Position numbers and translations under genes: made by a program. From IMG/VR virus record IMGVR_UViG_3300025889_000851, positions 1 to 25,768 of that record: a stretch of 25,768 nt of DNA; one strand, 5' to 3'. The notes under the pieces were generated by a model, which did no database searches, had not been told where the DNA came from, and saw only the letters and a list, made by a program, of their open reading frames with translations. This DNA is from a virus. Shown here one piece after another: positions 127-15,226 of the stretch; the first letter of the stretch is position 1, and each line of letters begins with the position of its first letter.

Positions 127-2274
127 ATGCCGTTACAGAAACTCCAGTTCAAGCCCGGTATCAACCGCGAGAACACCAACTACGCTGGCGAAGGTGGTTG
201 GTACGACTGCGACAAGGTTCGCTTCCGCTCTGGTTATCCTGAGAAGATCGGCGGCTGGCAAAATCTTGCGGCGTCTGTGGACGGGGTGTTTAACAGCTAC
301 ATAGGCATCTGCCGAAATCTCTGGAACTGGATCACACTCAATAGCAGCAACCTGCTGGCACTGGGCACTGAGCAAAAACTCTACATCGAAAACGGCGGTG
401 TCTACTACGACATCACCCCGATCAGAGACACCGCCACGATCAACACCGACCCCTTTGCCATTACTACGGGCTCCAAACTTGTAACAGTCACCGATACGGC
501 ACACAGCGTAACTGCGGGTACCTACGTCACATTCTCTGGGGCTACTGGCACGGACTACACAGTGTTTAACGCCGAGTTTGAAATTGTCAAGATCGTTGAC
601 GCCAACAGCTACCAAATAATCCTCCCGACAGCAGCTGCGGCTACAGGGTCAGGTGGGGGTGCGTCAGTAAGCGCGGCCTATCAAATCAACGCAGGTAACT
701 CTGTGTCGTCGCCCAGCACCGGCTGGGGTATTGGCCCTTGGGGTCGTGATGGCTGGGGCGAAGAGTTCTCCGGTACTGCTGTGGTGCAGGAAACGAACGC
801 ACTGCGCTTGTGGTCTCTGGACAACTACGGACAAGACCTCGTTTCTGCTGTGCGCGAAGGTGCAATTTACTACTGGGCTGCGGATACAACGACTAGCCCA
901 CCCCGTGCGGTAACCCTGAAGAGCCTCGCCAATACCGCCGGATACGACGAAGATTTTGTGCCCAACAGGGTGTTTGAAATCCATACATCCGGTGTGCAGC
1001 GCTTTGGTATCTGTGTTGGCGCGAATCCTTATGACCCGGGCAATGCCAATACCGATTTCGATCCCATGCTGGTGCGTTGGTCGGATCAAGAGAACATCTA
1101 CCAATGGGTGCCTGCTGCGGACAATCAGTCCGGTGAGCTGCGGCTTTCTCATGGTTCGCGTCTGGTAACGGGTAGGCATGGCAGGCAGGAGTTCGTGATC
1201 TGGTCTGACAGCGCCATCTACTCGATGCAATACCTCGGGCCACCCTATATCTGGGGTGTCACCCTGCTGATGGATGGCATCTCGATTGCCTCTCCGAACG
1301 CCGTGGTGGGTGCGAGCAACATCATGATGTGGATGGGCATCGACAAGTTCTACATCTACGACGGTATCGTGAAGACGCTGCCTTGCTCTGTGCGGCAGTT
1401 TATCTTTGATGATATGAACCAAGACCAGATGTTCCAAGTGGTCTCTGGGGGCAACGAGCAATACAGCGAAGTTTGGTGGTTTTACCCGTCTTCCGACAGC
1501 ACCGTAAATAATCGGTATGTGGTGTACAACTATCTTGATAACGTTTGGCATTACGGAACGCTGAATAGAACTGCATGGCTGGACTCCTCCCTGCGCGAGC
1601 GGCCCATGGGTGCGTTTAGCGTCAAAACCAGCTACCTGTCGGCCCAGATCAGCTCGTCGGATACCACGATCAACCTGCTGGACGCCTCAAGCTACCCGGC
1701 TGCTGGGGTGATTCAGATCGACAGCGAGGAGATCGCCTACACCAGCCGCACCTCTATCGCGCTGTCTGGTTGCACTCGTGGGTATAACAGCACCACTGCT
1801 GCTTCGCATGTAGCCTACTCGACGGCTGGGTTGGTGATTCCCAATCAGGTCATGTATCACGAGACTGGCAATGATGATTTGTCTACCTCGACACCCGTGG
1901 CGATTGAAGCCTATGTGGACTCTTCGGATTTTGACATTGGTGACGGCCATAACTTCGGGTTCGTTTGGCGGATCATTCCCGACCTGACTTTTGACGGCTC
2001 CACGACTCCGGCCCCGGATTACCCTGCGGTCACGATGGTGTGCAAACCCCGGCAGAACTCTGGTACAGCTTACGGCACCCCCAGCGCTCCCACGGTCACC
2101 AGCACCCAGAGCTACAACACCCAACGCGTCTACACGGTGCAGCAGTTTACCGGGCAGGTATACACGCGGGTGCGGGGGCGGCAGATGGCGTTTGAAATTC
2201 GGTCAACCGGCCTTGGGGTGGCATGGCAGCTTGGAACCCCGCGTATTGATATCCGCCCGGACGGCAAACGATGA
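127..2274 (+). CDS. Phage tail structural protein, probable beta-propeller/tail-hub type
   Basis: A 715-residue protein with no signal peptide or membrane segment, rich in Trp, Tyr, Gly, Ser and Thr. The start at 127 is preceded by AAGGGG, a usable ribosome binding site. The N terminus (KLQFKPGINRENTNYAGEGG, then WYDCDKVRFRSGYPEKIGGW) is typical of a large group of phage tail proteins. The C terminus ends in a conserved GRQMAFEIRSTGLGVAWQLG segment. Roughly residues 500-573 form a separate module (DTTINLLDAS, IDSEEIAYTSR, CTRGYNSTTAASH) that recurs in unrelated phage structural proteins. By analogy with P22 gp10 and T7 gp12 it is probably a propeller-like component of the short tail that seals the portal channel. 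That functional match is inference. The next gene overlaps its stop by 4 bases (ATGA), which suggests translational coupling. Confidence 0.65.
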   Translation: MPLQKLQFKPGINRENTNYAGEGGWYDCDKVRFRSGYPEKIGGWQNLAASVDGVFNSYIGICRNLWNWITLNSSNLLALGTEQKLYIENGGVYYDITPIRDTATINTDPFAITTGSKLVTVTDTAHSVTAGTYVTFSGATGTDYTVFNAEFEIVKIVDANSYQIILPTAAAATGSGGGASVSAAYQINAGNSVSSPSTGWGIGPWGRDGWGEEFSGTAVVQETNALRLWSLDNYGQDLVSAVREGAIYYWAADTTTSPPRAVTLKSLANTAGYDEDFVPNRVFEIHTSGVQRFGICVGANPYDPGNANTDFDPMLVRWSDQENIYQWVPAADNQSGELRLSHGSRLVTGRHGRQEFVIWSDSAIYSMQYLGPPYIWGVTLLMDGISIASPNAVVGASNIMMWMGIDKFYIYDGIVKTLPCSVRQFIFDDMNQDQMFQVVSGGNEQYSEVWWFYPSSDSTVNNRYVVYNYLDNVWHYGTLNRTAWLDSSLRERPMGAFSVKTSYLSAQISSSDTTINLLDASSYPAAGVIQIDSEEIAYTSRTSIALSGCTRGYNSTTAASHVAYSTAGLVIPNQVMYHETGNDDLSTSTPVAIEAYVDSSDFDIGDGHNFGFVWRIIPDLTFDGSTTPAPDYPAVTMVCKPRQNSGTAYGTPSAPTVTSTQSYNTQRVYTVQQFTGQVYTRVRGRQMAFEIRSTGLGVAWQLGTPRIDIRPDGKR

Positions 2275-3662
2275 CCAATCTTGTTGTTACGTCTGAGTTT
2301 GAGCTTAACAGGGTTGCCACGCCCAACCTGCCGGTTGCGCCTATAGCATACAACGAGCGGTATCAGAATCAGCTCAACAACATCCTTCGGTTGTATTTCA
2401 ATCAACTAAACAACATTCTAGGGCAACTCACTACGAACATGGCCTCTTTACCGATTACCTTCCCGCCAACGTCGCTGGATGCGTTTGGCCGCCTGCGGGC
2501 GAGCGAACCCTACACCCTGTTTGACAGCCAAAACCGATTTGCCGCCGACTCTCAGTTTGATACCTCAACCACGGGCACCGGTTCGACCACATTCCTGACC
2601 AACGAGGCTGCGGTCAGCATGGCGGTTACAAGCGGCGGCGTGGGGTCGGTCGTGCGGCAGACATACCGCAGCTTTCCGTATCAGCCGGGTAAAGGGCTTT
2701 TGGTTCTAGCTACGATGGTAATGGACGGCAGCACCAGCGCCAACCTGACCCAGCGGGTTGGGTATTTCAACACCAACAACGGCGTCTATTTCCAACGCAC
2801 AAGCGGGGTCAACTCCTTCACCCTGCGCTCCTACATCACCGGCTCGGTATCGAATGCTCGTAATGTGACGCAGGCAAACTGGAACGGCGACAAGCTGGAC
2901 GGCACGGGCGCTTCTGGTCTGACGCTGGACGTATCAAAAGCCCAGATTCTGTGGATGGACTTTGAGTGGCTGGGCGTGGGGTCGGTGCGGTGCGGGTTCA
3001 TCATCAACAACCAATACGTCGTTTGCCACACGTTCACCAACGCCAATGAAATTACCAGCGTCTACATGACCACGGCAATCCTGCCGCTGCGCTACGAGAT
3101 CAGCACCACAACCAGCGCGGTCGCGGCGTCTATGAAGCAGATTTGCTCTACGGTCATTTCGGAAGGCGGATACGAGCAGTATTCGTATGGTCACATCGCC
3201 CGCCGGACTACGGCGTTGTCGACAATCGGGGCGACTTTCCTGCCGCTGGTGTCCATCCGGCTGGCTTCCGGGCGAGGTGGTGCGGTGGTGCTTCCGTCCC
3301 GGGTTCAGGTGCTGCCGACGACCAGCCAGAGCTATGAGGTGGCCTTGGTGAAGAACCCCACCCTTACCGGCGCATCTTGGGTTGCAAGCTCATCGTCGAG
3401 CGTGGAGGAGGATGTATCTGCGACTGCCATGTCTTTCCCGGCTGGAAGCCGGATCGTGCAGACAGACTATGTGGCGTCGAGCGGCAGCGGCGGCGTGAAC
3501 CCGCTGGTCGACCCTTCTGGGTATAACTGGGACTTGCAGCTTGGGGAATCCCTCGCTGGGGTCAGTGACATCTACACCATTGCCATTCGCGTCGTAAATA
3601 CTCCGCCCACTGGCGACGCCGTAGGCTCCCTGTCATTCTGGGATTTGACGAATGGAACGTGA
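2271..3662 (+). CDS. Phage virion fibre or capsid/tail-associated structural protein
   Basis: A 463-residue protein that starts inside the stop codon of the upstream tail gene (ATGA overlap). Residues about 27-52 (NERYQNQLNNILRLYFNQLN) form an amphipathic helix suited to oligomerisation or docking. The conserved core begins at about residue 69 with LDAFGRLRASEPYTLFDSQ. It then continues with beta-rich segments such as FPYQPGKGLLVLATMVMDG and AQILWMDFEWLGVGSVRCG. I recognise this core from virion proteins of many aquatic podoviruses and siphoviruses, where it is annotated only as structural or fibre-like. The composition (Ser, Thr, Gly, Val, few Lys) suits an extracellular beta-structured protein. 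Whether it is a capsid decoration fibre or part of the tail cannot be decided here. A host-recognition role is possible but unproven. Confidence 0.55.
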   Translation: MTNLVVTSEFELNRVATPNLPVAPIAYNERYQNQLNNILRLYFNQLNNILGQLTTNMASLPITFPPTSLDAFGRLRASEPYTLFDSQNRFAADSQFDTSTTGTGSTTFLTNEAAVSMAVTSGGVGSVVRQTYRSFPYQPGKGLLVLATMVMDGSTSANLTQRVGYFNTNNGVYFQRTSGVNSFTLRSYITGSVSNARNVTQANWNGDKLDGTGASGLTLDVSKAQILWMDFEWLGVGSVRCGFIINNQYVVCHTFTNANEITSVYMTTAILPLRYEISTTTSAVAASMKQICSTVISEGGYEQYSYGHIARRTTALSTIGATFLPLVSIRLASGRGGAVVLPSRVQVLPTTSQSYEVALVKNPTLTGASWVASSSSSVEEDVSATAMSFPAGSRIVQTDYVASSGSGGVNPLVDPSGYNWDLQLGESLAGVSDIYTIAIRVVNTPPTGDAVGSLSFWDLTNGT

Positions 3663-3689: not shown

Positions 3690-5624
3690 ATGAACCAAAT
3701 GACGCCTATAGCCGCCGGTATAGCCTCGTTAGGGCGCGGCAACGACAAGATGCTGGTACATATGACCCCCGGGGAAGTGCGGGGGCTCCAATCCCTCGCC
3801 ATGGCCCATGGCGGTTCCCTGACCATTAATCCACATACTGGACTCCCAGAGGCTGGGATTTTGAGTTCTCTCATTCCGATGATGGCTGGTGCGGTCCTGA
3901 CCCCCATTATGGGGCCTATGGGTGCAGCGTTGGTTGTTGGAGGTCTGGGCACGGTTGCTACCGGCAGTATCGGCAAAGGGCTGATGATGGGTCTGGGGGC
4001 GTATGGTGGGGCTGGTTTGGGCGAGAGTTTGAGTGCTGCGGGTGCGGCGGAGGGCAATGCCTTGGCGTCGTCTGAACTTGCCAAGGCCTCAAACGCTGCG
4101 ACCGAAGCGGGTGCGGCGGCGTCAGATCAAATAACAAGACTAGCCAATGCACCCATTGAAGGGGCCGTCCGACCCTCAGACTTCGTACAAAACCCATATA
4201 CCCCCGAAGGCGCAGCCTATATACAGTCTCAACTAGATATGCCGCTTGAGCAGATAGCGCAGAGCGCGAAAGAATACGCCGCCGACGCTTATCAATTTCC
4301 CGGGTACACCCCAACTACTCAAGCCGCCCTGAATCGCGGCCCGTTTGAAAATGCGTGGGAAGGTTTTAAAGGGCTTGGTACTGAAGCTGGCCGAGATCGG
4401 TTTATGAACGCTGTAGGAGGAGTAAAGGGTCTTGCTATGAAAGGCGGTATGGCCGCTGCCCCAATGCTGATGGCTGGTCTGCAACCCAAACCTCTGGAAA
4501 CTCCGCCTAAAAAACCCTACGAATACTATAAAACCTCATATTCTCAACAGCGCAACCCACTCTGGGGACAACCCGGCCAGCCCTATTTTATTCAGTCTTA
4601 TGGCCCCGGTTCGTATACAACCGACCCTAGAGAAGTGACGATGGCTAAAGCTGGTGGACTGATGGCTTTGGCGGATGGGGGGTATGTGCCGGAAAGTGGT
4701 AGCGTTAGGATTCCCACGGTAGAAGACGAAAACAACGAGTCCCGAGTGCCGGACACCAAGATTAGGTTTGCCGGATATGCCCCTGAAAAGTCCGGGTCTC
4801 TTGCGAATCTCTCAGAGTTGCAGCTGAAACTGATTGCCGCTCGGTCTACCGATCCTGAGAAAAGAGGTGCGGCTATTCGTGAGCTCTATGTTCGGCAGGG
4901 CACACAGCAGCCGAGGTCGCAGTTTATTTCTGCTGAGAAGTTTATGGCCGCCGACGGCGGCGTAGTTCCAGCCCCTCAGATGCCTATCAGCCCGCTATTC
5001 CAACAGACCCCCGCTGCCAACCCCGCTGCGCTTGAGAACTATCTGGCACAACTGGGCACCCAGATAATGGCGACCGGGGCTTCGCCGTCTACCCCTGCTA
5101 CTCCTACCCCTACCCCCCAATTACCTGCCACTAACCAATACGGCTACAACCCCGCGACCCAGACGTTTTTCATGAACCCAAACTACGTAGCTCCGGATAA
5201 ACCGGCTGAGAGCGACGACAATGACGGCGGAAGTGAAGGAAGTGGCGACGCTGCGGGGGGTCCGATCAAGGCTCGGTATGCAGCGGGTGGGCTTGGTTCC
5301 CTGCCTGAATACGCAGCGGGGGGCAGGCTGCTGGACAGCGACGACTACGCTGCCGGAGGTGATACCCATAATAGGGTGTCGGATGGGGTGGCGGACTTAA
5401 TCCCGGCAGTTATTAAAGGGCCGAAACCACAAAGGGCGGCGCTGGCTGACGGAGAGTTTGTTATCCCCGCACGGATTGTTTCAGAACTTGGCAATGGTTC
5501 TACCAAAGCGGGAGCTAAACGGCTTTATGCCATGATGGAACGGGTTCAGCAGGCGCGTAGAAAAACAACCAGGAAAGGAGAGGTAGCTGTTGATACTAAG
5601 CCAGATAAACTTCTGCCTGCATGA
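3690..5624 (+). CDS. Glycine-rich virion protein with YAAGG motifs (putative ejection/assembly protein)
   Basis: A 644-residue protein with GGGGG five bases before the start. The N terminus (GRGNDKMLVHMTPGEVRGLQ, then SLAMAHGGSLTINPHTGLPE) is a conserved phage module. Residues about 56-118 are a Gly/Ala-rich hydrophobic stretch that could insert into a membrane. The middle carries Gly-Gly motifs: AGGLMALADGGY (321-332), AADGGVV (420-426) and three YAAGG copies (530-534, 541-545, 553-557). The C-terminal module (ALADGEFVIPARIVSELGNG, then STKAGAKRLYAMMERVQQAR) is widespread in phage virion proteins. A Pro/Thr linker lies at about 465-480. It sits between tail genes and other internal-protein genes, so I infer a virion protein, perhaps delivered during DNA entry. 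No enzymatic motif is visible. Confidence 0.55.
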   Translation: MNQMTPIAAGIASLGRGNDKMLVHMTPGEVRGLQSLAMAHGGSLTINPHTGLPEAGILSSLIPMMAGAVLTPIMGPMGAALVVGGLGTVATGSIGKGLMMGLGAYGGAGLGESLSAAGAAEGNALASSELAKASNAATEAGAAASDQITRLANAPIEGAVRPSDFVQNPYTPEGAAYIQSQLDMPLEQIAQSAKEYAADAYQFPGYTPTTQAALNRGPFENAWEGFKGLGTEAGRDRFMNAVGGVKGLAMKGGMAAAPMLMAGLQPKPLETPPKKPYEYYKTSYSQQRNPLWGQPGQPYFIQSYGPGSYTTDPREVTMAKAGGLMALADGGYVPESGSVRIPTVEDENNESRVPDTKIRFAGYAPEKSGSLANLSELQLKLIAARSTDPEKRGAAIRELYVRQGTQQPRSQFISAEKFMAADGGVVPAPQMPISPLFQQTPAANPAALENYLAQLGTQIMATGASPSTPATPTPTPQLPATNQYGYNPATQTFFMNPNYVAPDKPAESDDNDGGSEGSGDAAGGPIKARYAAGGLGSLPEYAAGGRLLDSDDYAAGGDTHNRVSDGVADLIPAVIKGPKPQRAALADGEFVIPARIVSELGNGSTKAGAKRLYAMMERVQQARRKTTRKGEVAVDTKPDKLLPA

Positions 5625-6073
5625 GCCAAATAATATATGAAGATGTAGACCCGTGGAAATTTGTAGACGAGTTAAAAGAAATATTCCCGGTGCATTACGA
5701 AGAGTTGAGCGTAACAAAAGAATATGAATTAGAGCCGGATTACGATGCGTATAAAAGATTAGCAGATTGTAACTGGCTTCGTTGCATAACTTGTAGGTGT
5801 GATGCAGAGTTAATAGGCTATATAGTGTTCGTTGTTCAGCCGCATCTGCATTACAAATCGTGTTTAACGGCGTTTGAGGATATTTACTATGTCAAAAAAG
5901 AATACCGCAAAGGCCGCGTCGGGCTCCGGCTGTTTAAGTACGCCGAGGATGTATTAAAGAAACGAGGGGTAAATAGGATCATAATGCACACAAAAGTACA
6001 CATGGATCACTCTCGTATATTTGAATATTTGGGTTACAAGAACACTGACAAGCTGTTCTCTAAAATGCTGTAG
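5621..6073 (+). CDS. GNAT-like N-acetyltransferase
   Basis: A 150-residue protein overlapping the upstream stop by 4 bases (ATGA). The region from about residue 60 shows the GNAT order: beta strands (ELIGYIVFVVQ), then FEDIYYVKKEYRKGRVGLRL, which corresponds to motif A, the acetyl-CoA pyrophosphate loop and following helix. An IIMHT strand and a FEYLGYKNTD end, corresponding to motif B, follow. The loop RKGRVG is a degenerate form of the usual R/Q-x-x-G-x-G/A. The gene is clearly richer in A and T than its neighbours: two 60-base lines counted by eye have about 35-40% GC, against well over 50% nearby. Its Ile/Lys-rich, Cys-containing composition is also unlike the flanking virion proteins. 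It may be a late-acquired moron-type gene that modifies a host or phage protein. The substrate is unknown. Confidence 0.75.
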   Translation: MSQIIYEDVDPWKFVDELKEIFPVHYEELSVTKEYELEPDYDAYKRLADCNWLRCITCRCDAELIGYIVFVVQPHLHYKSCLTAFEDIYYVKKEYRKGRVGLRLFKYAEDVLKKRGVNRIIMHTKVHMDHSRIFEYLGYKNTDKLFSKML

Positions 6074-6081
6074 GAGAAACT

Positions 6082-7095
6082 ATGTATTCACGTAGACAAC
6101 TGGAAGCACTAGGCGAACCCCTTGGGGATTCCGTAACCACTAAAAAGGCTACGGGTGGCTATCTCCTTGGCGGCGGTGGTAGTTCGGCCCCTGCTCCCAC
6201 TTCTCAGACTGTAACCCAGACTAGCATCCCGGAATACGCCCAGCCCTATGCCACGGAGATGTTTGGTAAGGCACAGGCACTGACTGACATTAACCAAAAC
6301 CCGTACCAAACATACGGCGGGCAGCGGACTGCCGGGTTCAACCCCCTGCAGACTCAGGCATTTCAGAATGTCGCTCAAATGCAAGCGTCTCCCGCTATCG
6401 GTGCGGGTATGGGCTTGGCGTCAATGTCCGGGATGGGCGGGCTTGGTGCGGGACAGCAGTATCAGCAGATGGCGACAGACCCCGGTGCTACGGCGGCATA
6501 CATGTCCCCTTACATGCAGAACGTGGTGGACTTCCAGAAAAGTCAAGCAATCAGGGATTACGGCAGGCAATTGCCGGGGATGCAGGCTGCAGCAACTAAC
6601 GCGCGTGCCCTTGGCGGTTCTCGTCAGGCCATCGTAGAGTCCGAAGCGCAGCGTAATCTGCAGAACCAGCTGGCAGGTATTCAAGCGCAGGGTACGCAAT
6701 CGGCGTTTGACCAAGCTAGGCAAGCACAGCAGTTTGGTTCGCAGCTCGGGCTGCAGGGTCTGGGGCTGGCGGGCACCGCAGCGGGTCAACTGGGCCAGCT
6801 GGGTCAGCAAAACTATCAACAGCTCATGGGTATCAACCAAGCTCAGCAGCAGGCCGGTGCTCAGATTCAGGCGCTTGAACAACAAGGACTTACACAGCGG
6901 TATCAGGACTTCCTCAACCAGCAACGCTACCCGTACCAGCAACTTGCGTTCATGTCTGATATTCTGCGGGGTGTTCCGGCAGCTACGTCGGCGAAAACCC
7001 TGTATGAGGCACCGGGTAGTACAGCAGCGCAGGTCGTAGGTCTTGGTGGGGGGATTGGCAGTCTGCTTAGCGGCATAGGAAAGGTGTCCTCATGA
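6082..7095 (+). CDS. Glutamine-rich virion structural protein
   Basis: A 337-residue protein with a good ribosome binding site (TAGGAGA) before the start. After a Gly/Ser-rich head (KKATGGYLLGGGGSSAP) comes the conserved segment SIPEYAQPYATEMFGKAQAL, then TDINQNPYQTYGGQRTAGFN. I recognise this as a common but functionally uncharacterised virion protein type in aquatic phages. The central part is Gln/Ala-rich and predicted helical (QAQQQAGAQIQALEQQGL and similar), suggesting a long helical bundle or coiled coil. The C terminus (VVGLGGGIGSLLSGIGKV) is a short hydrophobic Gly-rich tail that could touch a membrane. No catalytic motif is visible. Its position between other internal-type proteins, with a 4-base overlap to the next gene, supports a role in the virion core or in ejection. 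Confidence 0.5.
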   Translation: MYSRRQLEALGEPLGDSVTTKKATGGYLLGGGGSSAPAPTSQTVTQTSIPEYAQPYATEMFGKAQALTDINQNPYQTYGGQRTAGFNPLQTQAFQNVAQMQASPAIGAGMGLASMSGMGGLGAGQQYQQMATDPGATAAYMSPYMQNVVDFQKSQAIRDYGRQLPGMQAAATNARALGGSRQAIVESEAQRNLQNQLAGIQAQGTQSAFDQARQAQQFGSQLGLQGLGLAGTAAGQLGQLGQQNYQQLMGINQAQQQAGAQIQALEQQGLTQRYQDFLNQQRYPYQQLAFMSDILRGVPAATSAKTLYEAPGSTAAQVVGLGGGIGSLLSGIGKVSS

Positions 7096-8705
7096 ACAAT
7101 AGCAACGGAGTTTCCAGCTATCTGGCGGGCCCGGGCGGGCGGTTTGATTTGGCCAACCCCTCTACTCAGGCGATGGTAAAAGACGTCATGGGCAACCCCG
7201 GCGCGGCTCCGAAATATGGCGTTTCGTTACCGGAGATTTTTCAGCTTCATCAGTTGCTGAAGCAGATTAGCGCACAAACCCCGCAGCCGCAGCAAACTAC
7301 GGTTGCCGACGACCTCAAGATGGCAGCGCTGGCCTCTATTCAAGCACCCAATGCCGCACCGCCGCAGGGTGCGCAACCGCTACAAGGTATCCAACAGGCA
7401 ATGCCCCAAGCTCGGATGCCACAGAACCCGATGGAGCAGGGAGTGGCTGGCCTCGATACCGGCATGATGGAGAACGCCGAATACGCGGGTGGTGGCATCG
7501 TTGCCTTCGCTGGTGAAGATGAGCAGCTTGTGCCCGGAGAAGAAGGTACAGCGCCGAAAGGTGTTTCGCCTTTCTCCGGTACCTCAAAAGAACTGTACGA
7601 ACAGATATTGGCAAATCAGCGCGCACAACAAGCTGCCTTTAGGGTGCCTACATTGCAAGAAGCGATGGAGGAGGAGCGGGTGGCGCGGGAAGCCGCGGGT
7701 ATCAAAGGGAAACTTGGTGAAGAGCGTCTCAAGAAATTAGAGGGGGCCGGAAAGAAAGACGCTGAACGGGAAAAGAAAATCGCGGGGGGTGCGTTGACTG
7801 ATGCTTTTTTCAGGATGGCTGTAGCTGGGGGGCGCAAAGGCGCTACCTTCCTTGGTGCCGCTGCTGAAGGCGCTTCCGCTGGTTTTGCCAACTACGTTTC
7901 GGCGCAAAAAGAACTGGAAAAACTTCAGGCCGAACGCGATAAAGAGATCGCCAACATCCAGAACCTGCAGCGAGCTGAAGACCTCGGGTTTGTTAAAAAT
8001 GCGTCGGGTAAGATAGAGAAAGCGCAGGGCCACCTTGCGGATATAGAGAGAAATATATCTACCACCCAAGCCAGTATTGCGGGGCAGATGAGCGCGGCGG
8101 AAAGATCGCAAGCTGAGGCAACGTCGCGTGAAGGAGTCGCTCGACTGGACCGAGGCGCAAGGGCAGAAGAGGCGGCAGCAAACCGTGGGGTGCAACTGCA
8201 AATCGCTAAACTGCATGCAGCAGGACAACCGCTCGATGTCCAGAAGATCATGGAAATGCCGCAGTTTAATGCAGCGCATGGCAATAAAGACCCGGAAACA
8301 CGTTTGAAGATCGCCACGGAGTTGCTTGCAGGAAGAAGGGCCAGCCCGGAAAAAACCCAAACCGCGTTGATCAATGCTACAAGAGATGCAGCAAAAGAGT
8401 GGGGCAAGCTCACCGGGATCGGCGGTAGGTTGAGTCAGATTGCAAAACGTGCGGAGAACGCAGACCCTAAAATATCTGGACCAGCTAAAGCACAACTAGA
8501 AGCCGCTCGCCAGCGCCATTACGCCGGGTTCGATTTGGAAGCACCGTCGCTCTCAGATGAAGCCAAATATATTTCGGGGGCACCGCAAGCAGCAACACCC
8601 ACTACTGGAGCAGGACAGTTTAACGTGTCCGCCCCCAACGGTAAGGTATACTCTTTCCAAACTCAAGAAGCAGCGGACCAATTCGCAAAATCAATCGGTA
8701 AGTAA
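7092..8705 (+). CDS. Coiled-coil virion protein, function unknown
   Basis: A 537-residue protein beginning within the ATGA overlap with the upstream gene. The N-terminal third is Pro/Gln-rich and contains the motif YAGGGIVAFAGEDEQLVPGE, related to the GG motifs of the 644-residue protein upstream. From about residue 190 to 350 it is highly charged and Ala-rich (LGEERLKKLEGAGKKDAERE, YVSAQKELEKLQAERDKEIA), typical of a long coiled coil. One more hydrophobic patch lies at about 235-265. The last 25 residues (FNVSAPNGKVYSFQTQEAAD) form a small module that recurs at the ends of phage internal proteins. There is no enzyme signature. Gene order (just before the giant polyvalent gene) and composition suggest an internal virion or ejection protein, comparable in position to T7 gp14/gp15. 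That equivalence is inference. Confidence 0.5.
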   Translation: MNNSNGVSSYLAGPGGRFDLANPSTQAMVKDVMGNPGAAPKYGVSLPEIFQLHQLLKQISAQTPQPQQTTVADDLKMAALASIQAPNAAPPQGAQPLQGIQQAMPQARMPQNPMEQGVAGLDTGMMENAEYAGGGIVAFAGEDEQLVPGEEGTAPKGVSPFSGTSKELYEQILANQRAQQAAFRVPTLQEAMEEERVAREAAGIKGKLGEERLKKLEGAGKKDAEREKKIAGGALTDAFFRMAVAGGRKGATFLGAAAEGASAGFANYVSAQKELEKLQAERDKEIANIQNLQRAEDLGFVKNASGKIEKAQGHLADIERNISTTQASIAGQMSAAERSQAEATSREGVARLDRGARAEEAAANRGVQLQIAKLHAAGQPLDVQKIMEMPQFNAAHGNKDPETRLKIATELLAGRRASPEKTQTALINATRDAAKEWGKLTGIGGRLSQIAKRAENADPKISGPAKAQLEAARQRHYAGFDLEAPSLSDEAKYISGAPQAATPTTGAGQFNVSAPNGKVYSFQTQEAADQFAKSIGK

Positions 8706-8716
8706 CAGGAGCCGGG

Positions 8717-11700
8717 ATGGACTACGATAAACTCGCCAAACAATTTGGCGGAACTACAGCTCCTGTAAATGCTCCAGATAAAACCGATTTTGACGCGCTT
8801 GCCAAGCAATTTGGCGGAACTGCAGTCCCTGCAAATACTCCAGATAAAACCGATTTTGACGTGCTTGCCAAACAGTTTGGCGGCGAGGCAATTAGTAAAG
8901 AATACGTCCCCGGCACGCCTGCAGCGCAACCCGGGGGAGAAGGTTCTTTTTGGGGTGAAGTCAAGAAAGGCTTTGGCGCTGCATGGGAAGGCATAAAATT
9001 TACACCCGATGCTTTGAAACTGCAGACAAATGCCGAAGCCGTAGATATGCACAAGCAGCTGCTTGACGCGTATACACAAATTGACACTGGTAAAGAGTTC
9101 TCTCCTGCAGAAGCCTCCAAACTGAAACTTGATTACGCATTGCTGCGTAACTACCAAAAAGCTGACCCGGATCAACGAACCATAATTAAAAACACGGGCA
9201 CACAATTTGTTGGCGAGCGCTCTCAACAGATTCGTGAGGCCATACCTGCTTATGCTGAGTATCAAAAGCGCCTTGAGCCGTATAAAGGGCGGGTGCCTGA
9301 CGCTACGGATATCGAATCGCTAAAAGACTTCCGTGATTGGCTCGGTTACAACGTAGCCTCGGGGGCGGTACAAGTTATCCCTGTTATGGCTGCAGCTTAT
9401 GCAACCGGTGGAGTGGGTGCGTTTGCACTCGGCACGGGTATGGCGATGCAGGAAGGCGTACAAAATCGCCTCGACTTTGTATTAGATAAAGTAAAAAATC
9501 TATCGAACGAGGAGCAGGCAAAGGCGGTGCAAGAGTATTTGAAGGCGTCAGGTGATACCACCATGACCGTTGCTATCGCTTCAGGTGCACTTGATCTTGC
9601 TGGCCCAGTCGGTTCAATCCTCAAAAAGCGGCTGGCCAAGGAGCTAGGTACTGAAGTCGTCGAGTACGAAACAAAACGAGAAGCCGCAAAAGCCGCGTTG
9701 AAACAAGTCCCTCGGGAAATGGGCGAGGAGTTTTTAACTGGCGGTGCACAGGAGATCGCCCAAATAGCTGGGGAGCGTACACTTGGCGAACAGACCGGGG
9801 ATGTTTTCTCCAAAGAGAACGTAAAGCGGGTCTTTAATTCCGCTGCAGCGGAGGCCGCAGGCAGTGTTGCCGGTAGCGGTGTAAATGTAGGTACCTCAGT
9901 GGGTCGTCAAATGGTTAGGGAGCGTGCGGAAGCTCTAGCCCAGCAGGAGTTTGAAAAGCAACTGCAACAACGCGCCGCACCCAAAGCCGCACCTGAGGAT
10001 ATTGCGCAAACGTACGAAGCGCTGGTCTCGCGGTACCAAGCTGAAGGCATGTCGGAAGTTGAAGCGCTCAAGGCCGCTGGTGCGGATATTGCTCAAGGAG
10101 GTATTGATCTTGGACCTATGGGAACCGGAGCAGAGCTCGAAGGGGCTGAGCAGCGAACAACTGGTGGAGCAGGCGTGGGAGTGTCTGTACCACAACCACC
10201 CACCGAAGCACCCGCAGTTACTGAAGCTGGACGAGGAAGATTGGATGTTACTGAAGGACCTGCTGGTGAGGCTGTTTCGAGAGAAGGCCAACCAGCTGGT
10301 GCATTGAAGGGTGCGCAGTTAACTACGGATCAAGTTGAACAGGCCATCGCTCAAGCACAACAGACCCCGGGGGAAGCCTACACTATTAAGCAAGACTTTG
10401 GTGAAGTCGGTACCGAGGAATTCAGTTCTGAGACGCATCAAGCTACTGTTACACGCTTACCGGATGGAACTGCCGTAGTTTCGGCCCCCACACTTAGCGA
10501 CTTTGGCACATCTGTAGTATCCAGTAAAAAAGCTGAAGGGCTGTCCGACGGAGAGTTGATTAAAACTACGCTGCGTCCCGTCTTGGAAAGGTATTACGCC
10601 GATCCAGCCGACGTAGACCAGCGGGTAACCATATCAAAAGAAACTCCCACTGCTGAAACTCCCACTGCTGAAACTCCCACTGCTGAAACTCCCACTGTTA
10701 AAACTATAACTGCCGCTCCAAAAACAGAAGCTATCGCTCCAAAAACAGAAGCAACTACAACAGAAACAACTACGCCTACTGAAGTAGTTCCTCTTGAGGA
10801 CGTAACGGTCGAAACCCCGACTTCGCAGCTGCCGGTTAACCCAGAGACCGGATTAAAACCCCCGGGTAAGCGTGGCCGCCCCCGCATCGAGCGCACTCCG
10901 GAAGAACAAGCCGCTGCGGAAGCACAACGCAAAGAACGACAAAAAGTCGGACGCGATGCCATCAGAGCCGTCGAGAAAGCACAGCAAACTATAGCTGCGC
11001 CGGTAGACATTGAGGCCATTCAAAGACTTGCTCAGACGGACAAAGCCGCTGCCGTTGCGGTGATCAAAGAAGTGCAGCAAGGTAGAGACCTTGCCCTCCT
11101 TGAGGCCGCCCGGGTTCTTACGGATAAAAAGTTGAGCCCCACGGCGAAAGCCAAGCAAGTTGCGAACGCAGTATTCAGCCACCCCAGCGTTACAGCCGAA
11201 GAGCGTCAGCGGGCACAACGTAATGCACAGCTACGCGACACTGCAAAGAACATTCTGGTCGAAGGTTCAACAAGTTTCTACCCAGACCCGTTTTATGAAA
11301 CGGTTACGGACGCAACACAGGCAGCTAACTACATCAGCAAAAAAGGCAACGCTTTTGAACGCCTGCTGATTAACCGCATCAAGCCATTTTTAAAGGGTGT
11401 CAAAGTTGTCGTAGTAAACGACCCCCGCGTGGATATCCCTGACCCCGTAACACGTAGGGAGTTTAGGGGCGCTGCGGGTCTGTATGCTGAAGGCGACGGG
11501 CAACGCATTATTTATCTGAACAATATTGGTGGTAGGCGTGAAGGGCTTACCAACATGACGTTCCTCCACGAAGCAGTCCATGGTGCGACCATGGCGCAGA
11601 TAAACAGATTTTATAAAGACCCCGGTTCGCTAAGCCCGCAGGTCGTGAAGGCCATCCAAGTGCTAACGGAAGTAATGATCCGGGCGGGTGACCACTACAA

Positions 11701-14700
11701 CGTGCTCAAGAAGCAAGGCAAGACAGACCCGTTGGAAGACAGGCTCAACGAGCTAGAAGTGTTTGATGACTTGAAAGAGTTCGTTGCCTATGGCATGACG
11801 CAGCCGGAGATGCAGGACTTTCTGCTCAAGGTTCCGGGCTTTATACAAGTCCGAGCAGACAGGCTTAACGGGCTGACTGCGTTCGTCCGGGCCATCCAGA
11901 ACATGTTTGGTTTGGGGCCGCAGCATAACTCGGCGTTCCAAGACCTGATCATTATCACTGATCGCATTATGGGTGTAGATCAGCTGCCTGCGCCTACCGA
12001 GTCTGTAGAGGTCGCTGCTGCCAAGAAGGTTAAGGCGCAGAATAAAACGATGGAGAAGATTGCTAAATCTCAAAGAGCCGCTGATGTAAACGCCGGTCTG
12101 GGCGAGCTGATGATGCAAACCCGTAACGCCAAAGATGCTATACGGCTGCTCAAGTCTGTGTATAGTGCTCTGTCCATCAACGCAGTTCGTAAAATTCTGC
12201 CTACCATGACCACCATGGATACCACGCGATGGGTAGGCGATAAAATCAATAACATAAAAGTCGTCAACGACGCGGTCGAAGGTATGGCTGGTATGCGGAC
12301 TAAGATGATCCGCGAGCTGGCGGAGAAGACCCCGCAGTGGATTGAGTTTGGCCGTAAGTTTGAACGCGGGGCTCGCACTCTTGGCGACGTTATGCACGCA
12401 TCTACGCTGCTTGGTATAGACCCGACGCAGCATGCCGATCTGGCTACCGCGCTGAAGAACGACGCTAAGCTCAAACAGCTCCGAGTGGATTACCAAGCTG
12501 CAATCGCTGACCCTACTAAATCTCCGGGTCAACGTAGTAAACTAAAAGGTGATGTCACTAAGCGCGAGAATGATCTGAAAGCTGTATATGAAGGCGGAGT
12601 GGTGCAAAATCCCCACACCGGCGAAAAATATCAAATTGAAGGTTGGACGCAGCTTGGAAAATACGGCAACGGCGAAGGGCATCGAGTATTCCGCATGGCC
12701 CGGGATTCGTACCGGGATACGTTTGATCTACATCAAAAACTGCTTACCGACAAAATAAACAAGTCGGGAATTCCCGCCGCATCCAAAGCCAAACTGATCG
12801 CGGAGATTACGCAAGGGTTCCAAGAAGCCAAGCAGCTGGGAGTCTATTTCCCATTGATGCGTTACGGTAACTTCTGGCTGCGTATTGGCAAGGGTAAATC
12901 CGGCGAGTATTACATGTTTGAATCCGCAGCAGCGCGGAATAACTACGCCCGTATGCGGGCGGAGGAGTCGGGTAGGACACTAGATCAGGCATTGGAAGCT
13001 CAAGAATATGATGTAGGCGACAACCTCGATCAGATTCGCAACGACATTGTGGAATCCAGCCGGATGCTGAAGAGCATTTTTAACGCGCTCGAATCCAATT
13101 CAACCACTGACCCAACCACTGGTAAAGTTGGTATCACTGACGTAGCAGCTATCAAGGATCAGGTCTATCAGATGTTTCTCATGACACTGCCTGACCGTGA
13201 TATGCGCAAACGGTTTACGCACCGCCAAGGCAAGACCGGCTTTAGCGCCGATGTACTGCGTAACTTTATTGTCAACCAGCATACTGCGGCTAACCAGCTG
13301 TCACGTTTGGCGTATGCGGACAAGATTCGCCTTGGTATTGGCTCAGCATATGCAGAGCTCGCGGGTAATCCAGACAAACTGAAACTCAGCGCGTTTGTAG
13401 ATGAGATCGCCATGCGAGCTGGCGCGGAGATGACTCCGGCGATTCCGAACGGGTTTGATTGGGGCAAGATGGCCAGCATTGGGAACCAAGCGGTGTTCTA
13501 CTACATGCTGACTTCGCCTAAGTCGGCCATCGTGCAGATGACTCAGCTGCCAGTCGTTGGTATGCCCGCGTTGCTGGCACGATACGGTTCAGTAGATACG
13601 CTAAAAGTTACCGCACGGTATACCAATCTATTCGACAAGCTTGGCACCACTAAGCGGGATCGGAACGGCAACGTGACTACGGAATGGGGTGAGCCATCGA
13701 TTAACGATTCCTCGTATGTAAACAAACACCCCGACCCTGCATACCGCAGGGCACTACGGCAAGCATGGCAAGTTGCGCAGGACCGTGATTTGTTTATGTC
13801 TACCTACGCTGCGGATATGACCGCACGAGCTGCGGTGCCAACGGCTAAATATCAGGGTGTTACACAAAGGTCGTTACGGACTGTAGGTAATTTTATGAGT
13901 GGTGCCTTTCACCACCTTGAACGGATCACCCGGGAAATTATGTACATGTCCACGTTTGAGCTGGAGTTTGCTCGGGCTAAGAAAGGCGGAGCGGATGACG
14001 CAACGGCCACCGCTCGCGGTATTAAAGCTGCCACTGACATGGTCTACGAAGCGCTGTTTAACTACAGCCAATACAACAAGCCCCGGATGATGAAGGCAAA
14101 CGCAGCGACCAAGATCGCTACGCAGTTCATGACCTACCCGCTGCAGATGACCTCGTATTTGGGTCGCAACTTCTTCAACATGCTGCGCTCGCTGCCCCCA
14201 CAAGAACGCAAAGAAGCCGCTATCAAATTCTTTGGCACCATGGGTATGACAACCATGTTTGCTGGTGTTGTGGGGTTGCCCGGATATAGCGCGATACTGG
14301 GCCTCCTTGAGGGTCTACGTGAAGCATTCCGTCCAGACATGGAAGATGAGGGTGCGGACGAATACTACGATGATGATGACGACAGCAATCCGCTCGGCAA
14401 ACGTAGCTTGGATTTGTGGTTCCGTGAGTGGTTTATCCCCGCGTACTTTGGCCCGGACAGCAGCATTGCTAAAGCACTGGGATTGGACCAAACACAGGCG
14501 CTGATGCTCCAACGTGTGGTCAAGATGGGACCTGTTTCGGCATTGACGGACTTGAACATCGGTTCTTCCGTATCGCTTGACGGCCTGTGGTTCCGTGATG
14601 ATACACCAGCAGAAACCTCAAAAGAAGCTTTTATGCAGTTCGTGTTTAACACAGTAGCGGGGCCGCTTGGCAGCATGGGGCTGCAATTCTTTTCGGCTTT

Positions 14701-15226
14701 TGATGACTTCAACAACGGACAATTTAATCGAGGCGTTGAGAAGATTCTGCCCGCGTTCTTCCGGGGGACGGCCAAAGCAGTGCGGTTGGCATCGGAGGGG
14801 GAGCAGACTCGACAAGGTGCGGAAATTCGTAACGCTGAGTGGTTTACTACCGGCAAGCTGCTAGGCACAACGCTTGGGTTTCAGAGTACGGAAATTGCGG
14901 AGATTCAGAAAAAGAATTTCCTCGCCAAGCAGGTAGTCGTAGATGTACAGAAAGAACGCCAGAAAGTTCTCACCGCACTCGATCTTGCGATTCGGCGCTA
15001 TGAAAACGACTCCACTGACGCAAATGAGCAGCGAGTCGAAAAAGCGCTTAAAGAAGTTGAACAGTACAACTACAAAAACGGCGCTTTGCCCATAGACGCG
15101 GATACTGTGCAGAAATCTCTTGAGGGCCGTGCCAAACGTCGCGGTGCCGCTATCGAAGGGTTTATAGCTGGCCCGAAAGAATCCGCTATTGCCCGCCCAA
15201 TACTGGAACGAACTCAAGTGCAATAA
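8717..15226 (+). CDS. Giant polyvalent internal virion protein with zinc metallopeptidase motif
   Basis: A 2169-residue protein. The start is preceded by CAGGAGCCGGG, a good binding site. Residues 2-56 hold two and a half 22-residue repeats of D(Y/F)D-x-LAKQFGG type. About 215-245 is a hydrophobic Gly/Ala-rich segment. About 430-730 is a low-complexity linker with ETPTA repeats (642-661) and an AT-hook-like KRGRPR (718-723). A metallopeptidase-like domain follows, with HEAVH at 951-955 and a downstream Glu at 1021 (DLKEFVAYGMTQPEMQDFL), the layout of a gluzincin-type site. About 1835-1867 is a second hydrophobic stretch, followed by an acidic run (EGADEYYDDDDDSN). The C-terminal part (GPVSALTDLNIGSSVSLDG, then VAGPLGSM) resembles the LPD38/PLxRFG-type ends of phage large polyvalent proteins. 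It is probably packaged and injected, as T7 gp16 is. I see no transglycosylase motif. Confidence 0.7.
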   Translation: MDYDKLAKQFGGTTAPVNAPDKTDFDALAKQFGGTAVPANTPDKTDFDVLAKQFGGEAISKEYVPGTPAAQPGGEGSFWGEVKKGFGAAWEGIKFTPDALKLQTNAEAVDMHKQLLDAYTQIDTGKEFSPAEASKLKLDYALLRNYQKADPDQRTIIKNTGTQFVGERSQQIREAIPAYAEYQKRLEPYKGRVPDATDIESLKDFRDWLGYNVASGAVQVIPVMAAAYATGGVGAFALGTGMAMQEGVQNRLDFVLDKVKNLSNEEQAKAVQEYLKASGDTTMTVAIASGALDLAGPVGSILKKRLAKELGTEVVEYETKREAAKAALKQVPREMGEEFLTGGAQEIAQIAGERTLGEQTGDVFSKENVKRVFNSAAAEAAGSVAGSGVNVGTSVGRQMVRERAEALAQQEFEKQLQQRAAPKAAPEDIAQTYEALVSRYQAEGMSEVEALKAAGADIAQGGIDLGPMGTGAELEGAEQRTTGGAGVGVSVPQPPTEAPAVTEAGRGRLDVTEGPAGEAVSREGQPAGALKGAQLTTDQVEQAIAQAQQTPGEAYTIKQDFGEVGTEEFSSETHQATVTRLPDGTAVVSAPTLSDFGTSVVSSKKAEGLSDGELIKTTLRPVLERYYADPADVDQRVTISKETPTAETPTAETPTAETPTVKTITAAPKTEAIAPKTEATTTETTTPTEVVPLEDVTVETPTSQLPVNPETGLKPPGKRGRPRIERTPEEQAAAEAQRKERQKVGRDAIRAVEKAQQTIAAPVDIEAIQRLAQTDKAAAVAVIKEVQQGRDLALLEAARVLTDKKLSPTAKAKQVANAVFSHPSVTAEERQRAQRNAQLRDTAKNILVEGSTSFYPDPFYETVTDATQAANYISKKGNAFERLLINRIKPFLKGVKVVVVNDPRVDIPDPVTRREFRGAAGLYAEGDGQRIIYLNNIGGRREGLTNMTFLHEAVHGATMAQINRFYKDPGSLSPQVVKAIQVLTEVMIRAGDHYNVLKKQGKTDPLEDRLNELEVFDDLKEFVAYGMTQPEMQDFLLKVPGFIQVRADRLNGLTAFVRAIQNMFGLGPQHNSAFQDLIIITDRIMGVDQLPAPTESVEVAAAKKVKAQNKTMEKIAKSQRAADVNAGLGELMMQTRNAKDAIRLLKSVYSALSINAVRKILPTMTTMDTTRWVGDKINNIKVVNDAVEGMAGMRTKMIRELAEKTPQWIEFGRKFERGARTLGDVMHASTLLGIDPTQHADLATALKNDAKLKQLRVDYQAAIADPTKSPGQRSKLKGDVTKRENDLKAVYEGGVVQNPHTGEKYQIEGWTQLGKYGNGEGHRVFRMARDSYRDTFDLHQKLLTDKINKSGIPAASKAKLIAEITQGFQEAKQLGVYFPLMRYGNFWLRIGKGKSGEYYMFESAAARNNYARMRAEESGRTLDQALEAQEYDVGDNLDQIRNDIVESSRMLKSIFNALESNSTTDPTTGKVGITDVAAIKDQVYQMFLMTLPDRDMRKRFTHRQGKTGFSADVLRNFIVNQHTAANQLSRLAYADKIRLGIGSAYAELAGNPDKLKLSAFVDEIAMRAGAEMTPAIPNGFDWGKMASIGNQAVFYYMLTSPKSAIVQMTQLPVVGMPALLARYGSVDTLKVTARYTNLFDKLGTTKRDRNGNVTTEWGEPSINDSSYVNKHPDPAYRRALRQAWQVAQDRDLFMSTYAADMTARAAVPTAKYQGVTQRSLRTVGNFMSGAFHHLERITREIMYMSTFELEFARAKKGGADDATATARGIKAATDMVYEALFNYSQYNKPRMMKANAATKIATQFMTYPLQMTSYLGRNFFNMLRSLPPQERKEAAIKFFGTMGMTTMFAGVVGLPGYSAILGLLEGLREAFRPDMEDEGADEYYDDDDDSNPLGKRSLDLWFREWFIPAYFGPDSSIAKALGLDQTQALMLQRVVKMGPVSALTDLNIGSSVSLDGLWFRDDTPAETSKEAFMQFVFNTVAGPLGSMGLQFFSAFDDFNNGQFNRGVEKILPAFFRGTAKAVRLASEGEQTRQGAEIRNAEWFTTGKLLGTTLGFQSTEIAEIQKKNFLAKQVVVDVQKERQKVLTALDLAIRRYENDSTDANEQRVEKALKEVEQYNYKNGALPIDADTVQKSLEGRAKRRGAAIEGFIAGPKESAIARPILERTQVQ
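8720..8888 (+). repeat. In-frame 66-bp tandem repeat, about 2.5 copies
   Basis: Copies begin at 8720, 8786 and 8852, and each encodes 22 residues starting D(Y/F)D-x-LAKQFGG. The third copy is cut short after FGGEA. The DNA copies are diverged but close, with shared blocks such as CCAGATAAAACCGATTTTGA in the second half of copies 1 and 2. This suggests internal duplication under protein-level constraint. Confidence 0.85.
10640..10699 (+). repeat. 15-bp minisatellite, four copies, encoding ETPTA
   Basis: The unit GAAACTCCCACTGCT occurs at 10640, 10655 and 10670 without change. It occurs once more at 10685 with one substitution (GTT at the end). It is in frame and encodes ETPTA repeats in a disordered linker of the giant virion protein. 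Copy number could vary by slippage or recombination. Confidence 0.95.

What the first reader, a model, noticed from the sequence alone, without database searches (positions are those of the whole stretch)
11561..11779. Zinc metallopeptidase motif inside the giant internal virion protein
HEAVH at residues 951-955 and a downstream Glu in DLKEFVAYGMTQPEMQDFL (E1021) make a gluzincin-like site. T7 gp16 carries a transglycosylase, which I do not see here. The peptidase could process virion proteins, open the cell wall, or act in the host cytoplasm after injection.
Basis: partly seen in the sequence, partly recalled or inferred. Interest (0 to 1): 0.55.

Follow-up and report, generated by a model that had tools for sequence, protein, structure and literature searches.

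The report
Protease domain in phage ejection protein
A giant protein that this phage probably packs in its head and injects into its host carries a well-conserved zinc-protease fold, and the same fold sits in injected proteins of two well-studied phage groups, in one of which it has been labelled a cell-wall enzyme.

Summary
HEAVH (residues 951-955) and E1021 are really there, in a 2169-aa protein (ORF 8717-15226) that ends an ejection-type cassette. HExxH is expected 0.009 times by chance in it. In 12 divergent proteins, window included, the only invariant columns are H951, E952, H955 and E1021; in 80 closer sequences they are kept 80, 80, 80 and 79 times. AlphaFold2 (pLDDT 87) gives a zincin: three strands, a helix with HExxH, a later helix with the Glu. 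The best solved match is the C1 domain of N4 virion RNA polymerase (Z 10.0, 195 residues); lethal factor follows at 5.6. The kind is known: the metallopeptidase of 'polyvalent' phage proteins. The same domain also lies in phiKMV/PhiM1-type ejection proteins, where it is labelled endolysin or transglycosylase; my searches showed no paper that says so. Profiles link the three families even with the motif masked. No activity is shown, and Pfam does not recognise the domain. I think it acts on protein after ejection; published N4 and PhiM1 data speak against routine self-cleavage in the virion.

The parts
8717..15226 (+). giant internal/ejection protein, 2169 aa
   Evidence: C-terminal part matches DarB-like/PLxRFG giant phage proteins
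10154..11056 (+). linker, residues about 480-780, poor in hydrophobic residues, in part Pro/Thr/Glu-rich (holds TPTAETPTAETPTAET), probably disordered
   Evidence: composition only. In relatives the stretch 180-600 residues before the motif is on average also poor in hydrophobic residues (0.18-0.23 against 0.27-0.37 after the motif), but Pro reaches 10% in at most 23 of 68 proteins in any one window of it
11288..11974 (+). zincin domain, residues about 858-1086
   Evidence: AlphaFold2 pLDDT 87.1, pTM 0.81; VIA to N4 vRNAP C1 Z 10.0, 4.2 A, 195 residues
11567..11581 (+). HEAVH, residues 951-955: two presumed zinc ligands and the presumed catalytic Glu
   Evidence: 80/80 for each of H951, E952, H955; invariant in 12 divergent proteins
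11777..11779 (+). E1021, presumed third zinc ligand
   Evidence: 79/80, one Asp; invariant in 12 divergent proteins
12062..15223 (+). C-terminal module, residues 1116-2169, mostly helical, of the kind found in large polyvalent proteins
   Evidence: AlphaFold2 pLDDT 77.1, pTM 0.70; Foldseek BFVD best E 1.4e-57 to LPD proteins, weaker (8.5e-7, TMq 0.33) to Internal virion protein D of Roseobacter phage CRP-5
12200..12850 (+). LPD39 match, residues 1162-1378
   Evidence: Pfam PF18858 E 4.5e-9, over cut-off
12839..14338 (+). PLxRFG tail-700 match, residues 1375-1874
   Evidence: NCBIfam NF032893 E 2.5e-90
6082..7095 (+). putative ejection protein, 337 aa, first of the cassette
   Evidence: phrog_4287 DNA ejection protein E 4.8e-22
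7092..8705 (+). second cassette gene, 537 aa, in the position of phiKMV gp36 or N4 gp51
   Evidence: order only; no PHROG match, sub-cut-off Pfam pilot-protein match E 0.024

Best explanation
Residues about 858-1086 are a zinc-dependent zincin (gluzincin-type) peptidase domain, homologous to the C1 domain of N4-like virion RNA polymerases and to the so-called endolysin domain of phiKMV/PhiM1-type tetrameric ejection proteins. It is carried in the head as part of an intact giant protein. After ejection through the tail it refolds in the envelope or at the inner membrane and cleaves a peptide bond in protein: a host or co-ejected protein (my lean), or the giant protein itself. Shown here: presence, homology, predicted fold, strict conservation of the presumed catalytic set. 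Inferred: packing and ejection, zinc binding, catalysis, timing and substrate.
For: Four invariant residues in 12 divergent proteins. In 79 loci plus the window they are kept 80, 80, 80 and 79 times; 19 of 19 loci found only through the Glu pattern have HExxH, and 46 of 47 found only through the HExxH pattern have the Glu, one Asp. 15 of 15 phiKMV-type and related sequences keep all four (3 of them are also). Predicted zincin fold; N4 vRNAP C1 Z 10.0, lethal factor 5.6, PPEP about 4. Profile links with the motif masked: 96.9, 98.8 and 95.1%, against 1.7% for a masked unrelated HExxH domain; unmasked, that domain scores 4.9 to 24.9%. phiKMV gp37 residues 415-563 match the vRNAP PHROG at 2.5e-17. 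phiKMV and PhiM1 (PMC11440229, passages) have a lysozyme-like domain in the neighbouring ejection protein, so a wall-opening role is already filled there. Recombinant full-length N4 gp50 showed no evidence of degradation (PMC12633501, passages) and N4 vRNAP is packaged unprocessed (PMC5512222, passages), which points to action after ejection.
Against: No activity, bound zinc or substrate for this domain in the passages I read. Conservation could reflect a structural zinc site. Pfam does not recognise the domain: in the window nothing better than an unrelated family at E 0.3; of 54 members two match a 'putative metallopeptidase' family (DUF6782) at best 0.034 and one SprT-like at 0.034. The vRNAP PHROG that matches phiKMV gp37 does not appear for the window protein at E <= 0.1. 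Foldseek gives no PDB match at E <= 0.001 (best 0.06, N4 vRNAP), and VIA rows at Z 4-5 also include unrelated folds such as Vip1 phosphatase (4.5). The PhiM1 authors, using BLASTP and DALI, called their domain endolysin/exotransglycosidase-like. One structure-library match to the zincin model is named for a lytic transglycosylase domain (A0A6J5QDC6, E 2.2e-7); I did not open it. For the window's own lineage I found no lysozyme or SLT in the ejection genes, so wall cleavage stays possible there.
Confidence: 0.55

Rival explanations
1. Self-processing in cis: the zincin cuts the giant protein, for instance in the linker before it, to release its N-terminal part or effector domains, as Iyer et al. 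proposed for polyvalent proteins. (If it happens only after injection, this overlaps with the best explanation.)
For: A stretch poor in hydrophobic residues precedes the domain here and, on average, in relatives; one relative adds an ART-PolyVal domain; stated hypothesis, with P1 DdrB processing as precedent (PMC5512222, passages).
Against: N4 vRNAP is packaged unprocessed and showed no degradation when expressed; the PhiM1 domain is described as part of the tetrameric ejection protein in the head; phiKMV-type proteins keep the site though Pfam finds no family over cut-off in the four scanned.
Confidence: 0.25
2. Wall opening: the peptidase cuts peptidoglycan cross-bridges in place of the T7 gp16 transglycosylase.
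For: No SLT in 23 of 23 related records; lysozyme in 2 of 24, both in open frames of 154-155 aa and not in the giant gene.
Against: The domain also occurs where a lysozyme-like domain lies in the partner ejection protein and in N4-type vRNAP, which is modelled to reach the cytoplasm (PMC10925440, passages); the nearest solved folds are protein-cutting zincins. M15-type peptidase matches in 4 of 24 records, 3 over the cut-off. The records may be fragments, and other hydrolase families were not searched.
Confidence: 0.1
3. A dead or structural site: zinc only holds the fold of the ejection protein together.
For: No activity is reported in the passages read of the PhiM1 and N4 structure papers.
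Against: Glu952, not needed for a structural zinc, is as invariant as the ligands: 80/80 and 12/12.
Confidence: 0.15
4. A chance HExxH in a helical phage protein, with no zincin.
For: 53 of 5000 shuffles have an HExxH.
Against: Conservation, fold and masked profile links.
Confidence: 0.02

Closest known systems
Zincin-like MPTase of polyvalent proteins (Iyer et al. 2017, PMC5512222, passages)
   Same: Giant phage protein with LPD-type domain; HExxH helix, three strands, second helix with Glu
   Different: I could not place it in one of their 12 clades; 'KMV' does not occur in the main text
C1 domain of N4 virion RNA polymerase gp50 (PDB 9pnr, 9pnt)
   Same: Best solved structural match, residues 2124-2367; profile homology 98.7-98.8%; from the first His 1272 residues to the C terminus against 1218 in the window
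   Different: No RNA polymerase domain found in the window protein; C-terminal modules not detectably homologous
Tetrameric ejection protein of phiKMV-type phages: phiKMV gp37, PhiM1 gp48 (related PDB chains 9sfn_G, 8vb2_A)
   Same: Profile hits at 6e-29 and 5e-4 with HExxH and Glu aligned; last of a three-gene ejection cassette
   Different: Called endolysin/exotransglycosidase-like; 1337 and 1263 aa; Pfam finds nothing in them and NCBIfam no PLxRFG tail in gp37
T7 gp16
   Same: Large protein of an ejection cassette (recalled)
   Different: T7 gp16 carries a transglycosylase (PMC11440229, passages); none found here

Membership tests
Zincin-like MPTase of polyvalent proteins | HExxH helix plus Glu in the second conserved C-terminal helix | tested here: met
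Zincin-like MPTase of polyvalent proteins | three-stranded sheet with an N-terminal helix before it | tested here: met
   helices before strands 895-900, 921-926, 929-935
Zincin-like MPTase of polyvalent proteins | resides in a large multidomain mobile-element protein with LPD-type domains | tested here: met
   LPD39 over cut-off, PLxRFG tail
Zincin-like MPTase of polyvalent proteins | recognised by an existing Pfam metallopeptidase model | tested here: not met
   none in the window domain at E <= 1; weak matches in a few of 54 members. A missing model, not a defining trait of the fold
Zincin-like MPTase of polyvalent proteins | peptidase activity | not testable with these tools
   needs biochemistry
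N4-type virion RNA polymerase | C1 zincin domain | tested here: met
N4-type virion RNA polymerase | RNA polymerase domain | tested here: not met
   Pfam vRNAP families hit EcP1 but not the window protein, nor does the vRNAP PHROG; whole-record search 0 of 24, with a silent control
N4-type virion RNA polymerase | C2-type C-terminal module | tested here: inconclusive
   hhalign 0.4%; N4 vRNAP not among the 50 rows listed of 527 chains aligned
phiKMV/PhiM1-type tetrameric ejection protein | homologous zincin/'endolysin' domain | tested here: met
phiKMV/PhiM1-type tetrameric ejection protein | homologous C-terminal part, and tetramer | tested here: inconclusive
   hhalign 5.0%, above its controls (0.1-0.6%) but low; tetramer not testable
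T7 gp16-type transglycosylase protein | SLT domain | tested here: not met
   0 of 23 related records
Lethal factor / PPEP peptidases | same detailed fold | tested here: inconclusive
   Z 5.6 over 153 residues, PPEP-2 4.2 over 131; below the level at which a common arrangement is excluded

The most novel reading that the evidence does not exclude
The 'endolysin' or 'exotransglycosylase' domain of phiKMV/PhiM1-type ejection proteins, so named in many phage records, is not a wall hydrolase but an injected zinc protease. The same protease sits in N4-type virion RNA polymerases and in the window's polyvalent proteins, and by structure-library hits perhaps in crAss-like phages. It would be a common injected protease of short-tailed phages that acts on host or ejectosome protein in the first minutes of infection.
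Probability: 0.45. Interest if true: 0.75.

Novelty: new member of a known kind. Interest (0 to 1): 0.5.

Why it matters
Short-tailed phages inject proteins ahead of or with their DNA, and what these proteins do in the cell is largely open. A strictly conserved protease-type site shared by three classes of ejected proteins gives a concrete enzyme to test, and solved structures (8vb2, 9sfn, 9pnr) exist in which a metal could be looked for. It also suggests that a common annotation, 'internal virion protein with endolysin domain', names the wrong enzyme.

Tried and rejected
Chance motif: rejected.

A shared C-terminal module with N4 vRNAP C2 or phiKMV gp37: not found by hhalign (window family against vRNAP 0.4%, against phiKMV type 5.0%, vRNAP against phiKMV type 1.7%; reversed and unrelated controls 0.1-0.6%), nor in a fold search of the C-terminal model (N4 vRNAP not among the 50 listed rows). 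The model is large and mostly helical, so this is no disproof.

The injected zincin as the protease that cuts host RpoA in phiKMV-like infection: rejected, because induction of Rac alone provokes the cut (PMC7552054, passages).

Natural gene splitting as a hint of a processing site: L022 is broken over several frames, which looks like frameshifts, not a split gene.

Prophage relatives: a scan of genome contigs gave 26 pattern stretches and no relative. It uses short patterns, so this is weak.

Whole-record search for the vRNAP domain: 0 of 24, but its control was silent.

Selection and dropped rows. Only the best 80 of 257 relatives were returned. One search used 79 of the 84 loci plus the window: L002-L005 were left out as repeats of contigs held under other ids, L085 because the frame read (390 aa) had no HExxH; the cause was not resolved. 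The ten phage records were picked from tblastn rows with E from 2e-10 to 9 before I looked for the motif; tblastn favours the best-conserved part, so they are not a blind sample. For one search I fetched 9 of the 80 rows listed and added four proteins held already and two IMG/VR loci; these two and Draal03 are not classified as Autographiviridae in the records seen.

Print: the listings of searches (20 of 51 papers shown; 25 of 420; 14 of 14; 15 of 15; 12 of 30; 20 of 3258; none found; 10 of 2404) showed no title or abstract start that calls the phiKMV/PhiM1 domain a zincin. I read passages, not whole texts, of nine papers (PMC8954989, PMC11440229, PMC12633501, PMC5512222, PMC10925440, PMC7824862, PMC8472413, PMC7552054, PMC13340212). 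The supplementary files of Iyer et al. were not readable, and most subscription papers are not held. No paper for 9SFN was found.
Full report
What is there. The window is a 25,768-base virus record. On the + strand three genes of 337, 537 and 2169 aa (6082-7095, 7092-8705, 8717-15226) follow two virion structural genes (127-2274 and 2271-3662), a 644-aa gene with no Pfam or PHROG match (3690-5624) and a GNAT gene (5621-6073). The first of the three matches a DNA ejection protein family. The order is like N4 gp52-gp51-gp50 and phiKMV gp35-gp36-gp37. That the 2169-aa protein is packed and ejected is inferred from this and from its relatives, not shown.

The motif. HEAVH is residues 951-955, and E1021 lies 66 residues after the second His. 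In an alignment of 12 proteins (the window, one close relative and ten from named phages; 17-57% identity to the window) only four columns are invariant: H951, E952, H955 and E1021. I then scanned IMG/VR with two patterns, one around HExxH and one around the Glu: 257 relatives, of which the best 80 were returned. In 79 loci plus the window, the four residues are kept 80, 80, 80 and 79 times of 80 (one Asp). Because the search patterns include the motifs, I looked at each motif in loci found only by the other: 19 of 19 have HExxH, 46 of 47 the Glu. Relatives whose frame is closed at both ends encode proteins of 1945 to 3269 aa, apart from L022 (583 aa, broken frames) and L057 (1378 aa).

The fold. 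AlphaFold2 on 54 sequences gave mean pLDDT 87.1 and pTM 0.81: helices, strands 895-900, 921-926 and 929-935, helix 946-967 with HExxH, a helical insert, and helix 1019-1028 with E1021. Foldseek against the PDB has no match at E <= 0.001; its first five rows are N4 vRNAP (E 0.06, probability 0.95), lethal factor, the CorA channel (no zincin) and twice a putative zinc metallopeptidase. The second look by VIA-align puts N4 vRNAP far ahead (9pnr, Z 10.0, 4.2 A, 195 residues, chain residues 2124-2367), then lethal factor (5.6, 153 residues) and PPEP peptidases (about 4); at Z 4-5 unrelated folds such as Vip1 phosphatase appear too. The N4 range is the C1 domain, whose HExxH motif the authors mention (PMC12633501, passages); a zincin domain in N4-type vRNAPs is also described in PMC8472413 (passages). 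Coordinates could not be read, so metal geometry is not measured. Pfam does not recognise the domain: the window has nothing better than an unrelated family at 0.3, and of 54 members two match DUF6782, a putative metallopeptidase family (best 0.034), and one SprT-like (0.034).

Three families of injected protein, one domain. A profile of the family hits two solved ejection proteins: 9sfn_G, 1337 aa, at 6e-29, and 8vb2_A, the PhiM1 tetrameric ejection protein, at 5e-4, both with HExxH and Glu aligned. Profile-profile comparison gives 98.7% with five N4-type vRNAPs and 99.4% with four phiKMV/PhiM1-type proteins. With alignments of 80, 6 and 15 sequences the values are 98.8, 99.6 and, between the last two, 98.3%; with the motif masked 96.9, 98.8 and 95.1%. 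A second, different HExxH domain from nine relatives scores 5.6, 24.9 and 4.9% against the three families unmasked and 1.7% masked (against the window family, the only masked pair run); reversed profiles 0.2%. PHROGs links phiKMV gp37 residues 415-563 with the vRNAP family at 2.5e-17, though the window protein shows no such match at E <= 0.1. In a set of 15 phiKMV-type and related proteins, three of them already, all 15 keep the four residues. N4 itself has HELVH at 2228.

Likely mis-annotation. Proteins of the phiKMV type are named 'internal virion protein with endolysin domain', 'peptidoglycan lytic exotransglycosylase' or 'internal core protein' in many of the rows listed, and the label passes on through automatic annotation (PMC13340212, passages). 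The PhiM1 paper describes residues 268-528 of its tetrameric protein as endolysin/exotransglycosidase-like, on BLASTP and DALI, and a lysozyme-like domain in the octameric partner (PMC11440229, passages). The family profile covers residues 380-531 of that protein. In the four such proteins scanned (phiKMV, PhiM1, R28Z, Draal03) Pfam finds no lysozyme or SLT at E <= 1. I therefore think the label is wrong. Against this: I have not seen the DALI result, polyvalent proteins can combine the peptidase with a lysozyme or transglycosylase domain (PMC5512222, passages), and one BFVD match to the zincin model is named for a lytic transglycosylase domain. The words protease, peptidase, metallo and HExxH do not occur, as word beginnings, in the PhiM1 paper's main text.

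What it does. Iyer et al. (PMC5512222, passages) predicted such domains in N4 vRNAP and other polyvalent proteins and proposed self-processing before or after injection, or attack on host proteins. Against routine self-processing stand the intact N4 protein, the PhiM1 domain still in place in the head and the retention of the site in phiKMV-type proteins in which Pfam finds no family over cut-off. Against wall opening stand the lysozyme-like domain in the phiKMV and PhiM1 partner proteins and the nature of the nearest folds; but for the window's own lineage no SLT was seen in 23 of 23 records and lysozyme only in 2 of 24, in short open frames, so that rival stays alive. Against a merely structural zinc stands the invariance of Glu952. 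I settle on action on protein after ejection, substrate open, at 0.55.

The rest of the protein. Residues 1116-2169 form a mostly helical module (pLDDT 77.1, pTM 0.70) with LPD39 and PLxRFG-tail matches. Its best BFVD matches are large polyvalent proteins over nearly the whole length (best E 1.4e-57, TM 0.79/0.74), and weaker ones include Internal virion protein D of Roseobacter phages CRP-5 and CRP-4. It is not detectably homologous to the C-terminal parts of N4 vRNAP or phiKMV gp37. A tree of 49 zincin domains keeps the 27 of the window group together (support 68); five of six vRNAP domains group (100), while that of nACB1 falls with the phiKMV type and Alcala (82), which hints at exchange between families.

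Novelty. The domain is a new member of a known kind. The link from N4-type and polyvalent proteins to the phiKMV/PhiM1 'endolysin' domain did not appear in the listings of my paper searches (top rows only, in most) or in the main text of Iyer et al. (no 'KMV'); their supplementary files were not readable.

Noticed in passing
L038 residue 2082, L040, L051, L052, L061, L063, L076, L082, L095 (also L045, L055, L069, L077): Some relatives, 2488-3269 aa as read, carry a second HExxH domain (HELAHF...HGA.F in most), SprT-like by recall; profile comparison of nine of them shows no link to the first domain.
   Followed up: partly
L095:2701-12507: One relative adds an ADP-ribosyltransferase of the polyvalent type (residues 1368-1512, E 1e-25) and a sub-cut-off HATPase match after the zincin.
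   Followed up: no
window 5621-6073: A GNAT acetyltransferase gene lies directly before the ejection cassette.
   Followed up: no
BFVD matches of the zincin model: Predicted structures from uncultured phages cr127_1, cr8_1, cr4_1 (crAss-like by recall) and Cellulophaga phage phi14:2 match the zincin model at E 3e-5 to 2e-3, so the domain may reach crAss-like giant proteins.
   Followed up: no
phage records H186, H188, H214, H218: Four RefSeq phage proteins annotated 'internal virion protein with endolysin domain' carry HExxH...E in the matching domain.
   Followed up: partly
L102 (Xanthomonas phage Alcala) 3699-10976: A 2425-aa protein annotated hypothetical has the zincin (HEVLH at 923) and a second motif HEMGH at 1125.
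   Followed up: no
window 3690-5624: A 644-aa gene with no Pfam or PHROG match between the structural genes and the GNAT gene and ejection cassette.
   Followed up: no
L022: The giant gene is broken over several reading frames in this contig; sequencing or assembly error is likely.
   Followed up: partly
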